From: a virus
Virus record (IMG/VR): IMGVR_UViG_3300010391_000135
Location: 1-28,903 of that record
Length of the DNA: 28,903 nt
Reading direction: 5' to 3' (one strand)
In this document: positions 19,617-23,737 of the stretch, piece after piece
Numbering within the stretch: the first letter of the stretch is position 1
How the letters are laid out: the number at the start of each line of letters is the position of its first letter
Translations under genes and position numbers: made by a program
Notes under the pieces: model-generated
The model's database searches: none
Told to the model about the DNA's origin: nothing
Seen by the model: the letters and a program-made list of their open reading frames with translations, nothing else

Positions 19617-19646
19617 TTCGGCTGTCCCGAACCACGGAGGGTGCCG

Positions 19647-20039
19647 ATGGGCAGCGAGCAACGCGTGAAGCAGGGCGACCTGGAACTCTACCGGGCGATC
19701 GTCGGAGAGGTCGAAGTGTCGAAGAAGTACGACCACAAGGGCTGCCCCAAGTGCGGGGTCGGCCCGGCCTCGAACCAGCCGCCCAAGTTCGAGAAGAAGT
19801 TCTGCTACGGCCTCGAGCCCGGGCTGGGCCGTGTGCTGGTTGGATTCGCCGACTGCCGACTGGTGGGCCCGCACCTTCACGGGACCTGCGCGGTGTGCGG
19901 GTTCTCGTGGTTTGAGCGCTGCATGGACGACGACCTGATGCGGGACGGTCGCGGCGGGCTGCGGCACGATGAGTCGGTGGCGGATGACGGGACCACCGTG
20001 CGCGAGCGACCGAAGGTGCTGACGATGGTCCCGTCATGA
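19647..20039 (+). CDS. Phage zinc-ribbon protein
   Basis: 130 residues from ATG 19647, with GGAGGG 5 nt upstream; a GTG two codons earlier is disfavoured by spacing. It has Cys33-x2-Cys36 and a second pair Cys81-x2-Cys84 preceded by a His-x-His (about 76-78), in the order H-L-H-G-T-C-x-x-C-G-F-x-W that recurs in small phage zinc-ribbon proteins. It is the first gene of the plus-strand cassette. It probably binds nucleic acid or a host protein; no more specific role can be read. Confidence 0.75.
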   Translation: MGSEQRVKQGDLELYRAIVGEVEVSKKYDHKGCPKCGVGPASNQPPKFEKKFCYGLEPGLGRVLVGFADCRLVGPHLHGTCAVCGFSWFERCMDDDLMRDGRGGLRHDESVADDGTTVRERPKVLTMVPS

Positions 20040-20428
20040 GCTATTTCGTGCATCCGCGGTGGGCGCCGGGGCAGCAGCCGACAGAGGCCGAGTGCTACGA
20101 CCGGCGGTGTCTGGCGTGCGGCACCGACTTCGATGCGCTCGACCATCGCCGCGGCCGGCCGATTCAGTTCGCCTCGCTGGCGAGCTACGGGTTCGAGAAC
20201 CTGATCTGCTCCGGGTGCCACGACGAGATCGCGAACGGCCCGCTGGACGTAGCTGACGGGGCGCTCGGGCGTTTCCTGGTGGGGCTGGCGCTGGTGGTGC
20301 ACGCGCGGGCGAAGCTCGACGCGGTGGCGGACCCGACCACCGGGCTCTCGGCGGACGAGTGCCGCGCTTTCGCCGAGTACTGCCGGAAGATCGGGGCCGC
20401 CAAGGCCGCCCTCGGGAAGGCGACGTGA
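20036..20428 (+). CDS. Small zinc-binding protein
   Basis: 130 residues from ATG 20036, overlapping the previous stop as ATGA. Cys25-x2-Cys28 and a distant Cys58-x2-Cys61 (about 33 residues apart) form a four-cysteine zinc site. The C-terminal half is helical (ALGRFLVGLALVVHARAKLDA...ADECRAFAEYCRKIGAAKAAL). No family was recognised. The two neighbours on each side also contain cysteine pairs. Confidence 0.7.
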   Translation: MSYFVHPRWAPGQQPTEAECYDRRCLACGTDFDALDHRRGRPIQFASLASYGFENLICSGCHDEIANGPLDVADGALGRFLVGLALVVHARAKLDAVADPTTGLSADECRAFAEYCRKIGAAKAALGKAT

Positions 20429-20724
20429 ACCGGCGCTCGTTCCTCGGCCTGCTGGGGCTGGGCGCGGCACTGAGGTCGGCCCCGGCCGCGGCGCACGGCT
20501 CCCATCGGCACGAGGGCGGCGAGCCCGATGACCCGCGGCATTGCTGGCACTGGCGGGCGGGGCACGGGCAGGTCGAGCGAGGCGGGGCGTTCGTGGGCGA
20601 GACCTGGTGCTGCGGCTGCGCGCGGGTCGGACTACGGAAGCCACGGCCTCACGATCTCGTGCCGGGCCACCCGCTGCTGACGGTGGACAACGCAGACGCC
20701 AACGGCGCGGAGTTCGTGGCGTGA
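20425..20724 (+). CDS. Small protein with a twin-arginine (Tat) export signal
   Basis: 99 residues from GTG 20425, overlapping the previous stop as GTGA. The N-terminus MNRRSFLGLLGLGAALRSAPAA has the RRxFLG motif, a moderately hydrophobic core and an AAA cleavage region (about 21-23). The mature part is rich in His and Cys (HGSHRHE, HCWHW, WCCGC), suggesting metal binding after folding in the cytoplasm, which is the usual reason to use Tat. An exported phage protein in an early-type cassette is unusual. The frame begins further upstream but without a better start. Confidence 0.65.
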   Translation: MNRRSFLGLLGLGAALRSAPAAAHGSHRHEGGEPDDPRHCWHWRAGHGQVERGGAFVGETWCCGCARVGLRKPRPHDLVPGHPLLTVDNADANGAEFVA

Positions 20725-20756
20725 GCGAGTGGTGGACGCTGGAGGTTGCGACGTGA
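20721..20756 (+). CDS. Possible 11-codon leader peptide
   Basis: A GTG at 20721 overlaps the previous stop and gives MSEWWTLEVAT before TGA at 20754. It lies just upstream of the next gene, and its codons hold the GGAGG ribosome site of that gene, so it may act in translational coupling. It may also be fortuitous. Confidence 0.3.
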   Translation: MSEWWTLEVAT

Positions 20757-21001
20757 GCGCGGTGCTCGAGGTTCGGCACTATCCGCCGCCCACGGCGGAG
20801 GAGGCTCTGGTAGCGCGTCGTTTCGGGTGGGTCCACCACGCTGTCTGGGACCGCGGCGTGCTCGTGATGTTCATGGAGTTTCGCGGCAGGAATGTGGTCG
20901 AGGAGCACCCGTCGCAGAACGGGCCCGATTCGTGGACCATCAATGGTCGGCCGCCAGGTTGGTGGGCGCGACAGCAGAGCCAGGGGGAGGGGCCGCGATG
21001 A
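20753..21001 (+). CDS. Small protein, unknown
   Basis: 82 residues from GTG 20753, with GGAGG 7 nt upstream. It contains alternating hydrophobic and charged segments (VRHYPPPTAEEALVARRFGWVHHAVW) and an aromatic, Trp-rich C-terminus (SWTINGRPPGWWARQQ). No domain was recognised. It overlaps the next start as ATGA. Confidence 0.65.
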   Translation: MSAVLEVRHYPPPTAEEALVARRFGWVHHAVWDRGVLVMFMEFRGRNVVEEHPSQNGPDSWTINGRPPGWWARQQSQGEGPR

Positions 21002-21399
21002 ACGAGGGGTGGCAGGAACCGCCGCGTCTGATACCGTGGGGTCCGGGCTCGATCCGCCCGGAGGACCTGACGCCGATGACCGACCCGATGCGCGAGCGCA
21101 TCCGAGCGAAGCTGGCGGCCGAGCGTTCGACGCGCCGACTGGCGGAGATCCGGCGGCTCTACGAGGAGGCGCAGGCGGCGATGAAGGTGCGCGAAGGGCT
21201 GGTGACGGTGCAGCATGGCGGCTGGTGGCACCTGTGCGCGTTCTCGGGCGCCGGGACCTTCTGCGGGTTCTCGCCCGAGGAACTGGCTTCGGAGCCGGCG
21301 CCGCGTCCGAAGGATAACGACCGCTGCGCGCTCTGCGACTCCGTGCTCGGCGAGATCAACGCGATCGCGGCCGGCACCAAGCCCGGGAGCGCGCCGTGA
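20998..21399 (+). CDS. Small protein with cysteine pairs
   Basis: 133 residues from ATG 20998 with a GGGGAGGGG site. There is a helical middle (MRERIRAKLAAERSTRRLAEI), then H-x-C (78-80), Cys89 and a final Cys110-x2-Cys113, a possible zinc site. Function unknown. It sits two genes before the Acb2-like gene. Confidence 0.7.
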   Translation: MNEGWQEPPRLIPWGPGSIRPEDLTPMTDPMRERIRAKLAAERSTRRLAEIRRLYEEAQAAMKVREGLVTVQHGGWWHLCAFSGAGTFCGFSPEELASEPAPRPKDNDRCALCDSVLGEINAIAAGTKPGSAP

Positions 21400-21452
21400 G
21401 CGAGCCCATCCGCGACCGCGGCGACCACAAGCTCGACGAGGCGAAGGCGTGA
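21396..21452 (+). CDS. Possible 18-codon small ORF
   Basis: A GTG at 21396 overlaps the previous stop as GTGA and encodes MSEPIRDRGDHKLDEAKA before TGA at 21450. The charged composition fits a coupled micro-gene, but there is no independent support beyond the overlap style. Confidence 0.3.
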   Translation: MSEPIRDRGDHKLDEAKA

Positions 21453-21468
21453 ACCCGGGAGGCTCCTG

Positions 21469-21705
21469 ATGCCCGACTACCACGACGAGATCGAGCAGTC
21501 GTTCCGCTGGGCGCACCGCAACTACCACGCGCCGCAGCCTGACCGGCTCCCGCGCTACGAGGCGCTGCGCGACGGGGCGAGGGCCTTGGCGCACGGGATC
21601 GACGCCGCCTGCCCGCTCTCTCGCGAGAAGCTGATCGCCCTGGACCGGCTGGCGGAGTGCATCATGTGGGCGAATCGGGCGATCAGCGTGAACGAGGCGG
21701 AGTAG
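21469..21705 (+). CDS. Acb2-like cyclic-nucleotide sponge (anti-CBASS)
   Basis: 78 residues from ATG 21469, with GGGAGG 6 nt upstream. It reads like the small phage Acb2 family: a Y-H-x-P segment (NYHAPQPD, 18-25), a charged helix (RYEALRDGARALAHGID, 29-45), CPLSREK (48-54) and a C-terminal LAECIMWANRAIS (61-73) matching the CP-x-SREK and MWAN-x-I motifs I recall for this family. Acb2 proteins bind cyclic di- and trinucleotides made by CBASS cyclases, preventing effector activation and cell suicide. The gene lies in a run of accessory genes, as anti-defence genes do. The match is from memory of the family, not from alignment. Confidence 0.8.
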   Translation: MPDYHDEIEQSFRWAHRNYHAPQPDRLPRYEALRDGARALAHGIDAACPLSREKLIALDRLAECIMWANRAISVNEAE

Positions 21706-21927
21706 TTGGACCCGATCCAGAAGTTCGTCGTGGCGATGCGGGCCTACGAGTTCGTGTTCGGGATCGGGCTGGTCATCGGCGTCGTGGTCGGATGGCTCGC
21801 GGGGCGACTCGGAACGGGGAAGCGGAATGAGGCGGAGATCAAGCTGCCGGGTGCCGGGCCGGATCACGGCACGGCGCTCGGGGCTCCGCCCGATGTCGTG
21901 CCGGAGAATCCGACGCCCGACCCGTAG
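21706..21927 (+). CDS. Small one-helix membrane protein
   Basis: 73 residues from TTG 21706, the first base after the Acb2-like stop; GGCGGAG just upstream could serve as ribosome site. It has one clear transmembrane segment (about 15-36) rich in Gly/Val/Ile, then a charged, Pro-rich tail. It could be a holin-like or membrane-associated accessory, or act with its upstream neighbour. No family was recognised. Confidence 0.6.
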   Translation: MDPIQKFVVAMRAYEFVFGIGLVIGVVVGWLAGRLGTGKRNEAEIKLPGAGPDHGTALGAPPDVVPENPTPDP

Positions 21928-21932
21928 GATTT

Positions 21933-22007
21933 CGCCCCGTAGAGCAGCGGCAGCTCGCGTGGCTCATAACCACGAGGTCGCGGGTTCGAGTCCCGCCGGG
22001 GCAACCA
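21933..22007 (+). tRNA. tRNA-fMet-like (anticodon CAU), CCA encoded
   Basis: Complete cloverleaf: acceptor CGCCCCG/CGGGGCA, D-stem GAGC/GCTC, anticodon stem CGTGG/CCACG with loop CTCATAA, T-stem GCGGG/CCCGC with TTCGAGT, discriminator A and encoded CCA. The first acceptor pair is a C-A mismatch and the D-stem holds the A-U pair at 11-24, both hallmarks of bacterial initiator tRNA. The anticodon stem base has GG/CC plus one U-A, not the full GGG/CCC. It follows the small membrane gene by 5 bp and is in the same orientation. Confidence 0.9.
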
Positions 22008-22106: not shown

Positions 22107-22128
22107 CTACGACTGGGGCGTTGGCGTT
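22098..22128 (+). terminator. Possible terminator of the plus-strand cassette
   Basis: Stem CGCCCCGGT/ACTGGGGCG (22098-22120) with a 5-nt loop and one G-U pair on the plus-strand RNA, followed by TTGGCGTTT. The tail is only modestly U-rich. It overlaps the 3' end of the convergent methyltransferase gene and could stop both operons. Confidence 0.45.
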
Positions 22129-23546
22129 TGTAGGAGCGGCGCGTCGGCGCGGATGCGCTCGCGGGCCTCGACCTCGAGGATCCGCCGCCCGAGCCATTCG
22201 ACCACCGGCACCGCGACCGCGTTGCCGAGCATCTGGTAGCGCCGCGAGTCGCTGAGCTTCCAGTTCGCGTGGCCGAGCGTCCAGCCATCTGGGAAGCCTT
22301 GCAGGCGCTCACACTCGGTTGGCGTGAGGCGGCGGACGCCGACGCTCCCGGCAACGCTCATCCCTCCGGCGTGAAGCGTGGGCGACTCGCCGTCCAGGAA
22401 CCTCGTTCGATTGACTCCACTGGTCACGTTTCGAGGATCGAATCCGCCTGCGATAACCTCAGTGCTGGAGTTGGAACCCGGCCTCGGATGCGATCGCAAC
22501 GTCCCCGCCACCAGCGGAGTATTATCCGACGAGTCGCCCGCGCCCTTGTCGCGCCCGCCCACGCGCAGCGTCGGTGCCACGATCAGGTGCCCGTCCTTCG
22601 TGTCGGAGTCCGGGCCCTTCGCATCGCGCTCCTGAAGCGCCCACGCGACATCGGGCACGACGTACAGATTCCCGTTTCCTCGCTCGGTTGAAGATCCCGC
22701 TTGCAGCGGAGGCATCGGACCGATCGGCAGCGTCGAGTTCCAACCGTTGCCGGAGTTCGGACCCGTGCCGCGCGGCGAGCCGTTCAGCGTGTACGCGAGA
22801 TTGTCCGCACCATCGCCGCGCGCTCTGCTGTGCCCGTGGTGCCCGGCGCTCGCCGTCACGGGGCTGGCGATGAGTCCTCCGCCGCAGTCGGCATAGGTGC
22901 CAAGGCCGCCACCGCCTCTAGCGCGGTTTGCAAGCGATGGTCCAAGACGCGCCCTCGCCGCGCCGCGCGCCGCAGGATGCCGACGCACGCTCTCGGGCTC
23001 AAAAAGAACCTGAGCGGTGCGCCCGTCTCCAAGATGTCCGACAATGAACACGCGACGGCGCCGCTGTGGGACTCCGAAGTGCTGAGCGTCCAGAATCCGC
23101 CACGCGACGCCATACCCGAGTTCGACCAGCCCGCGAACGATGACGGCAAAATCGCGTCCTCCGTTGCTGGATAGAAGGCCGGGCACGTTCTCGACGACGC
23201 ACCAGCGCGGAGCAAGCTCTCCAAGAATGCGATGGAACTCCCACCAGAGGCCGGATCGCTTTCCAGCCAGGCCCGCGCGGCGTCCGGCCACGCTGAGATC
23301 CTGGCAGGGGAAGCCGCCGCAGATGAGGTCAACGTGAGCGAGGTTTGATCGTCGCGCGTATCGGACATCTTTCAGGACCCTCCGGTGGAACGTCTGTCGC
23401 AGGAACTTCCGGCACGCCCCGTCGCGCTCGACCTGCCACGAGCAGCGCATCCCGGCGCGCTCGAAGCCGAGCTCGAAGCCGCCGATGCCGGAGAACAGCG
23501 AGCCGAATCGTAGCGCGTCCCCCTCAATGATCTCGGCGACCCTCAC
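22107..23546 (-). CDS. DNA cytosine-5 methyltransferase
   Basis: 479 residues from GTG 23546, overlapping the previous stop as GTGA. All key motifs are present in order: I FGSLFSGIGGFELGF (14-28), IV GGFPCQ with catalytic Cys81, VI ENVPG (119-123), VIII QRRRRVFIVG (161-170), IX RRLTPTECERLQGFPDGW (405-422) and X GNAVAVPVVEWL (441-452). The target-recognition region between VIII and IX is long (about 230 residues) and Gly/Ser/Asn-rich. It transfers a methyl group from S-adenosylmethionine to C5 of cytosine in an unknown site. No restriction enzyme gene is adjacent, so it is likely an orphan used to protect phage DNA or alter expression. Confidence 0.95.
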   Translation of the reverse strand: MRVAEIIEGDALRFGSLFSGIGGFELGFERAGMRCSWQVERDGACRKFLRQTFHRRVLKDVRYARRSNLAHVDLICGGFPCQDLSVAGRRAGLAGKRSGLWWEFHRILGELAPRWCVVENVPGLLSSNGGRDFAVIVRGLVELGYGVAWRILDAQHFGVPQRRRRVFIVGHLGDGRTAQVLFEPESVRRHPAARGAARARLGPSLANRARGGGGLGTYADCGGGLIASPVTASAGHHGHSRARGDGADNLAYTLNGSPRGTGPNSGNGWNSTLPIGPMPPLQAGSSTERGNGNLYVVPDVAWALQERDAKGPDSDTKDGHLIVAPTLRVGGRDKGAGDSSDNTPLVAGTLRSHPRPGSNSSTEVIAGGFDPRNVTSGVNRTRFLDGESPTLHAGGMSVAGSVGVRRLTPTECERLQGFPDGWTLGHANWKLSDSRRYQMLGNAVAVPVVEWLGRRILEVEARERIRADAPLLQTPTPQS

Positions 23547-23737
23547 TTCGCCTCCGGCGCGAACGCGGCGACGAAGTGCGTCTTGAGGTGCGCGACCGCC
23601 GCGGCGTACACGGTGCGCCCGTCGCCGGTGACGAGGATCGTGTTCTTCGGCACCTCCGGCCGCGGGCCGCACCAGATCGCGTACTGGCCGGGCTGCTCGG
23701 TCTGCTCGATGCCTAGGATCAGGCGCTTCGCGCTCAC
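23543..23737 (-). CDS. Small protein upstream of methyltransferase
   Basis: 64 residues from GTG 23737, overlapping the previous stop as GTGA and the methyltransferase start as GTGA. A beta-alpha-like sequence (RLILGIEQTEQPGQYAIWCG, NTILVTGDGRTVYAAAVAHLKTHF) without known motif. The open frame extends upstream only as antisense-looking sequence. Possibly a helper of the methyltransferase, on position alone. Confidence 0.65.
   Translation of the reverse strand: MSAKRLILGIEQTEQPGQYAIWCGPRPEVPKNTILVTGDGRTVYAAAVAHLKTHFVAAFAPEAK

What the first reader, a model, noticed from the sequence alone, without database searches (positions are those of the whole stretch)
21469..21705. Acb2-like anti-CBASS sponge gene
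A 78-residue protein carries Y-H-x-P, CP-x-SREK and MWAN-x-AI motifs in the order I recall for Acb2 proteins, which sequester CBASS cyclic nucleotides. If right, the host range includes CBASS-bearing, high-GC bacteria, and the neighbouring unknown genes become anti-defence candidates.
Basis: partly seen in the sequence, partly recalled or inferred. Interest (0 to 1): 0.8.

Follow-up and report, generated by a model that had tools for sequence, protein, structure and literature searches.

The report
Divergent phage Acb2-type sponge gene
A phage of unknown host carries a small gene related to known proteins that soak up the alarm molecules bacteria use against phages; the family is already known, but this copy has an unusual amino acid at a spot linked to holding the alarm molecule.

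Summary
Window 21469-21705 (+) is a well-supported 78-aa gene with the stated motifs. It matches Pfam PF24729 (Acb2/Tad1 hairpin) at 55.2 bits, E 8.4e-15, cut-off 27. The proven sponges T4 Acb2, PaMx33 Acb2 and SBSphiJ7 Tad1 pass the same model. The AlphaFold2 model shows a short N-terminal helix (low confidence) and two long helices. Tad1 and T4 Acb2 are Foldseek's top two PDB matches, with weak E-values. The pocket Tyr is kept (Y19 = T4 Y8) and there is no Tad1 beta-domain. Best reading: a hairpin-only, Acb2-type cyclic-nucleotide sponge.

Two cautions. No binding was or could be tested. And this copy is divergent: Asp59 replaces the Thr found in 109 of 123 distinct homologues. That position equals T4 T68, where T68M is reported to lower Acb2 binding (PMC12657230, legend). 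It also has Arg70, Val74 and a five-residue insertion, so binding may be changed or lost. Host, CBASS content and any anti-defence role of the neighbours are not shown. Relatives are already annotated as Acb2 in actinophages, so this is a new, divergent member of a known kind.

The parts
21469..21705 (+). CDS of the 78-aa hairpin-only Acb2/Tad1-family protein
   Evidence: ORF; PF24729 E 8.4e-15; coding statistics
21457..21462 (+). GGGAGG, ribosome-binding-site-like run, 6 nt before the ATG
   Evidence: sequence read; by eye, function inferred
21523..21684 (+). PF24729 Acb2/Tad1 hairpin domain (residues 19-72)
21505..21519 (+). codons 13-17 (RWAHR), an insertion before the Tyr
   Evidence: no letters in these columns in 71 of 71 aligned relatives
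21523..21525 (+). codon of Tyr19, counterpart of T4 Y8 / PaMx33 Y11
   Evidence: alignments; profile position 2 in all three
21622..21624 (+). codon of Arg52 (SREK motif), counterpart of PaMx33 R67
   Evidence: Arg in 112 of 123
21643..21645 (+). codon of Asp59, where 109 of 123 homologues have Thr; counterpart of T4 T68 / PaMx33 T74
21676..21678 (+). codon of Arg70, where 118 of 123 homologues have Ala; T4 R79 / PaMx33 R85

Best explanation
The gene encodes a divergent hairpin-only member of the Acb2/Tad1 family. It most likely works like T4 and PaMx33 Acb2: copies of the small helical protein assemble (a hexamer in the proven cases), and pockets between them hold bacterial cyclic nucleotides without cutting them, so that CBASS-type effectors are not switched on during infection. 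Shown here: the gene, its family, the predicted helix order, the kept pocket tyrosine. Inferred: the hexamer, the ligand, the sequestration and the gain for the phage. Because Asp59, Arg70 and Val74 differ from nearly all relatives, the ligand set may not be the usual one.
For: PF24729 at twice the cut-off; T4 Acb2, PaMx33 Acb2, SBSphiJ7 Tad1 and PDB 9ptq 'Acb2 homolog 43' pass the same model. The match starts at profile position 2, as wide as for T4 and PaMx33 Acb2 (1-58), while Tad1 matches only 24-54. A family profile finds 9ptq at E 8.6e-9 and Tad1 chains at E 0.004. AlphaFold2 mean pLDDT 82.9, helices 4-13, 27-47, 52-75. Foldseek's first two of 79 PDB matches are Tad1-gcADPR and T4 Vs.4-cGAMP; the ten best viral-model matches are all named Acb2/Tad1 hairpin proteins, probability 1.00. 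Y19 and R34, counterparts of T4 Y8 (Y8A is binding-deficient, PMC12657218 and PMC12657230, passages) and PaMx33 K26, are kept; Y in 114 and R in 121 of 123.
Against: Asp59 replaces the Thr that T4, PaMx33 and Tad1 share; T68M at that place in phage Bas35 is reported to lower T4 Acb2 binding (PMC12657230 legend). T4 F82, which stacks on the nucleotide (PMC12657218), is Ser73 here (but Ala in PaMx33 and in 119 of 123). The single sequence found no sponge in the PDB, T4 Vs.4 is only E 0.3 to 0.7 from the family profiles, Foldseek E-values are 0.66 and 1.0, and VIA-align puts unrelated helical chains at or above Vs.4 (Z 6.2). Residues 1-20 of the model have pLDDT 53-61. No hairpin-only member of this branch was found tested in the papers I could search.
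Confidence: 0.62

Rival explanations
1. A retuned or site-dead sponge. Asp59 (with Arg70) changes or removes binding of the ordinary CBASS signals, either as decay or as an adaptation that avoids guard systems such as Panoptes, which fire when Acb2 empties the signal pool.
For: Asp at residue 59 in 1 of 123 homologues, this one. Non-Thr59 goes with non-Arg74 (11 of 14 against 13 of 109). The window protein has the second-longest end branch in the tree, 1.71 against a median of 0.33. T4-like phages alter Acb2 in nature: T68M in Bas35, and the annotated T2 Vs.4 lacks Tyr8.
Against: Frame, codon use and ribosome-site-like run are intact; Y19, R34 and R52 are kept. The counts are of sequences that share ancestry, so they overstate the association. 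A long branch can also mean missing near relatives.
Confidence: 0.2
2. A Tad1-type sponge whose main ligand is gcADPR of Thoeris rather than CBASS nucleotides.
For: The SREK...MW(A)N motif resembles the Tad1 hairpin, Tad1 is Foldseek's first PDB match, and family profiles score Tad1 above T4 Vs.4.
Against: No beta-domain: 78 aa and no strand in the model; Tad1 (142 aa) matches the Pfam model only from residue 91 on. A review says loops of that domain and the C-terminal tail line the Tad1 gcADPR pocket (PMC12043709).
Confidence: 0.07
3. A helical hairpin with another job in phage growth (scaffold, regulator), so that the family name overstates what hairpin-only members do.
For: Homologues sit in very different places: after a portal gene, between lysin B and holin genes, among DNA replication genes, 9 nt after a terminase gene. 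A genome announcement says the role in mycobacteriophages is unknown (PMC11953737).
Against: Residues aligned with pocket residues of proven sponges are kept across the branch, and variable residues change together. A solved member of the branch is deposited as an Acb2 homologue (9ptq), though I saw no paper on it.
Confidence: 0.1

Closest known systems
PDB 9ptq 'Acb2 homolog 43'
   Same: Nearest solved chain by family profile, E 8.6e-9; shares PEGREKS...TKLEEAM; passes PF24729
   Different: Has Thr where this protein has Tyr19, keeps Thr at the place of Asp59; ligand and paper not seen
T4 Acb2 (Vs.4, PDB 7uq2)
   Same: PF24729, Tyr8 = Tyr19, W76-A-x-R79-A = W67-A-N-R70-A, same helix order
   Different: 27-28% identical; longer loop between the helices; Thr68 instead of Asp59; Phe82 instead of Ser73
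PaMx33/PaP2 Acb2 (PDB 8h2j, 8h2x, 8h39)
   Same: PF24729; Tyr11, Lys26, Arg67 align with Tyr19, Arg34, Arg52
   Different: 16% identical; no SREK or MWAN; Thr74 instead of Asp59
Tad1 (SBSphiJ7; PDB 7uaw, 8kbb-8kbh)
   Same: Shares the C-terminal hairpin with CREN...TKLEEALMW
   Different: Has an N-terminal beta-domain, absent here
Hairpin-only Acb2/Tad1 proteins of Paenibacillus, Mycobacterium and Gordonia phages
   Same: 67-91 aa, YHxP / SREK / MWANxxI layout, up to 46% identical
   Different: They keep Ala70 and, in the seven phage proteins translated, Thr59; none has the RWAHR insertion

Membership tests
PF24729 Acb2/Tad1 hairpin | Score above the curated cut-off of 27 bits | tested here: met
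   55.2 bits, E 8.4e-15; also found in the whole record
Acb2 | Short N-terminal helix plus two long antiparallel helices, no beta-domain | tested here: met
   helices 4-13, 27-47, 52-75; the first helix has pLDDT 53-61, so that part is weak
Acb2 | Pocket tyrosine (T4 Y8 / PaMx33 Y11) | tested here: met
   Tyr19, profile position 2; need for Y8 from papers; Y11 and K26 as pocket residues are recalled
Acb2 | Thr at T4 68 / PaMx33 74, conserved in the family though not strictly defining | tested here: not met
   Asp59; Thr in 109 of 123, so 13 other members also lack it
Acb2 | Fold match to solved Acb2 | tested here: inconclusive
   7uq2 is Foldseek rank 2 at E 1.0; VIA-align Z 6.2 among unrelated helical rows
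Acb2 | Homohexamer | not testable with these tools
   only single chains could be predicted
Acb2 | Binds and releases cyclic nucleotides, blocks CBASS | not testable with these tools
   needs an assay
Tad1 | N-terminal antiparallel beta-sheet followed by the hairpin | tested here: not met
   78 aa, no strand in the model; compare the 142-aa SBSphiJ7 Tad1

The most novel reading that the evidence does not exclude
This sponge has been re-specified: Asp59 with Arg70 replaces the Thr/Ala pair of its relatives, so it either holds a signal outside the usual CBASS set or no longer empties the pool that guard systems such as Panoptes watch. A separate clade, found in one virus contig and in genomes of Acidobacteriota, Planctomycetota and Calditrichota, in which Arg52, Thr59 and Trp67 are replaced together (Arg59, Thr67, no Arg52), would be a second, independent re-specification of the same site.
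Probability: 0.15. Interest if true: 0.55.

Novelty: new member of a known kind. Interest (0 to 1): 0.3.

Why it matters
If it binds nucleotides, it extends a mostly untested hairpin-only branch of the Acb2/Tad1 family to a phage lineage with no close relative found here, and offers a natural variant at the Thr that a T4-like phage also alters. That makes a question testable: does one position set the balance between beating CBASS and waking Panoptes? If it does not bind, it warns against naming such genes anti-CBASS from the Pfam hit alone.

Tried and rejected
PADLOC and NCBIfam gave no family for this protein. A single-sequence search of the PDB gave only chance matches; profiles were needed.

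Tad1 membership was rejected for lack of the beta-domain. A long antisense ORF (20779-21867, minus, 362 aa) was rejected: codon score -130 bits, GC highest at codon position 1. A pseudogene was not my first choice because frame, codon use and ribosome-site-like run are intact.

Host: a terminase search for near relatives in viral contigs found none, and the best phage record is 27% identical. I then searched 10 hand-picked records out of the 203 loci on disk: 2 of 10 had a terminase match. One (38% over residues 10-293) is a contig in a deltaproteobacterial MAG that also holds an acb2 homologue with Thr59. That is a hint, not a host call.

VIA-align ranks unrelated helical chains at or above T4 Vs.4, so the fold alone would not have settled the family. 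A promoter/terminator scan gave one minus-strand promoter-like site and no terminator; repeats near the gene look like chance.

Limits of the counts: viral and genome loci were fetched by patterns over residues 63-72, so conservation there is partly selected; residues 19-59 and 74 lie outside. From the 80 loci the alignment for AlphaFold2 used 70: 74 distinct proteins, less three without a start codon and one over 115 aa; with the window protein and L001 that makes 72 rows. The 123 distinct homologues come from all loci on disk at E 1e-3, include the window protein and SBSphiJ7 Tad1, and the profile contained the window protein; T4 and PaMx33 Acb2 are not in it.

Full report
What is there. Window 21469-21705 (+) is an ATG-to-TAG ORF of 78 aa. 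A GGGAGG run sits 6 nt upstream. Codon use trained on nine ORFs of the structural region favours this frame (35.2 bits, best other frame 8.0), and GC at the third codon position is 0.96. It lies in a run of small plus-strand ORFs (about 19641-21927), followed by tRNA-Met at 21933-22007. The window is a 28,903-base IMG/VR virus record with terminase, portal and major head protein genes on the minus strand and a C5 DNA methyltransferase on the minus strand at 22107-23672.

Family. Pfam PF24729 (Acb2/Tad1 hairpin) matches residues 19-72 at 55.2 bits, E 8.4e-15, cut-off 27. PHROGs gives phrog_1454, function unknown, E 5.6e-14. As positive controls I took T4 Vs.4 (Acb2), PaMx33 ORF24 (Acb2) and SBSphiJ7 Tad1 from annotated records; they score 71.4, 66.1 and 34.2 bits on the same model. 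T4 and PaMx33 Acb2 match profile positions 1-58, the window protein 2-56, Tad1 only 24-54. The tyrosine (T4 Y8, PaMx33 Y11, here Y19) falls on profile position 2 in all three Acb2-type proteins. A profile built without the window protein scores it 83.2 bits against 10.7 for the best of 5000 shuffles.

Structure. AlphaFold2 on 72 sequences from the window and from fetched viral loci gave mean pLDDT 82.9 and helices 4-13, 27-47 and 52-75; residues 1-20 have low confidence, pLDDT 53-61. [quoted passage not shown] Foldseek's first and second PDB matches are Tad1 with gcADPR and T4 Vs.4 with cGAMP, but only at E 0.66 and 1.0. VIA-align gives 7uq2 Z 6.2, 2.5 A over 60 residues, fifth in the list among unrelated helical rows of similar Z. 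In the viral model library the ten best matches are all named Acb2/Tad1 hairpin proteins with probability 1.00. By sequence profile the nearest solved chain is 9ptq 'Acb2 homolog 43', E 8.6e-9, then Tad1 chains at E 0.004 and T4 Vs.4 at E 0.3.

How it most likely works. T4 Acb2 is a sponge: proteinase K frees the bound nucleotide again (PMC12657218, passages), and Acb2 is a hexamer (PMC10419184, passages). The same mechanism is the best reading here: a small oligomer holding cyclic nucleotides so that effectors stay off. Shown: gene, family, predicted fold, kept tyrosine. Inferred: hexamer, ligand, sequestration, gain for the phage.

What is unusual. Among 123 distinct homologues in the loci on disk (window protein and SBSphiJ7 Tad1 included), residue 59 is Thr in 109, Arg in 8, Ala in 2, Asn, Leu and Met in one each, and Asp only here. 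In T4 this is T68. [quoted passage not shown] Residue 70 is Ala in 118 of 123 and Arg in two, this one and L095, both without Thr59; T4 and PaMx33 Acb2 also have Arg there but keep Thr. Residue 74 is Arg in 99 of 123 and Val only here. Residues 13-17 are an insertion seen in none of 71 aligned relatives. In the tree the window protein has the second-longest end branch, 1.71 against a median of 0.33, and its place is unsure.

A second variant. Eight homologues (L001, a virus contig, and L113, L116, L117, L118, L120, L121, L122, genome contigs titled as Acidobacteriota, Planctomycetota or Calditrichota) carry Arg59 and Thr67 instead of Thr59 and Trp67 and lack Arg52 (Ala in six, Pro in L001, Gln in L120). 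They form one clade with support 100/97, so this is one event, and the Fisher p of 1.6e-10 for residues 52 and 59 is inflated by ancestry. It fits residues 52, 59 and 67 acting together, as a ligand site would; that is inference.

Spread and prior naming. In annotated phages, tblastn at E up to 1 finds 239 records, 138 named Mycobacterium, 59 Paenibacillus and 31 Gordonia; 12 of the 40 rows listed there carry a phosphomannomutase label. Relatives in actinophages have been called cyclic-nucleotide-sequestering proteins or Acb2 in genome announcements (PMC11953737 and PMC13348362, passages); the first says the role in mycobacteriophage infections is unknown. I matched the cluster E gene to this family by its neighbourhood in ChotaBhai, not from the announced genomes. 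A narrower pattern found 28 loci in the species-genome collection. So the kind is known. I found no paper testing a hairpin-only member of this branch in the searches, which cover open-licence papers only.

Verdict. The functional claim is likely but unproven, and this copy departs from its family at a position where a change has been linked to weaker binding. Host range and the role of the neighbours remain open.

Noticed in passing
L001, L113, L116, L117, L118, L120, L121, L122: A clade of Acb2/Tad1 hairpin proteins with Arg59 and Thr67 in place of Thr59 and Trp67, and no Arg52: a coordinated change at three conserved positions.
   Followed up: partly
L095 3368-3874 (-): A possible fusion: an Acb2 hairpin (residues 109-165, PF24729 58.4 bits) after about 100 residues (DFPEAN...PPVWLDG) with no Pfam match; it also has Ala59 and Arg70. 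The start codon is unsure.
   Followed up: partly
window 22107-23672 (-): C5 cytosine DNA methyltransferase (PF00145, E 1.5e-67), possibly anti-restriction.
   Followed up: no
window 21706-21927 (+): A TTG-started 73-aa ORF with one hydrophobic stretch follows the acb2 stop codon at once; coding statistics support it, no family above cut-off.
   Followed up: no
window 21933-22007 (+): tRNA-Met (CAT), 5 nt after the preceding ORF.
   Followed up: no
window 19641-20428 (+): Two small ORFs overlapping by 4 nt (19641-20039, 20036-20428), each with CxxC pairs that look like zinc ribbons, no family match.
   Followed up: no
L111 1199-3103 (+): In a deltaproteobacterial MAG contig a terminase related to the window's (38% over residues 10-293) is followed after 9 nt by an acb2 homologue with Thr59.
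   Followed up: partly
L204 2591-2851 (-): The annotated Vs.4 of phage T2 begins differently from T4 Vs.4 and lacks Tyr8, in line with a remark in PMC12657218 that T2 has a mutation probably disrupting the site.
   Followed up: partly
L004 2998-3213 (+) and other Paenibacillus phage records: 71-aa Acb2/Tad1 hairpin protein annotated as putative phosphomannomutase, very likely a wrong label.
   Followed up: no
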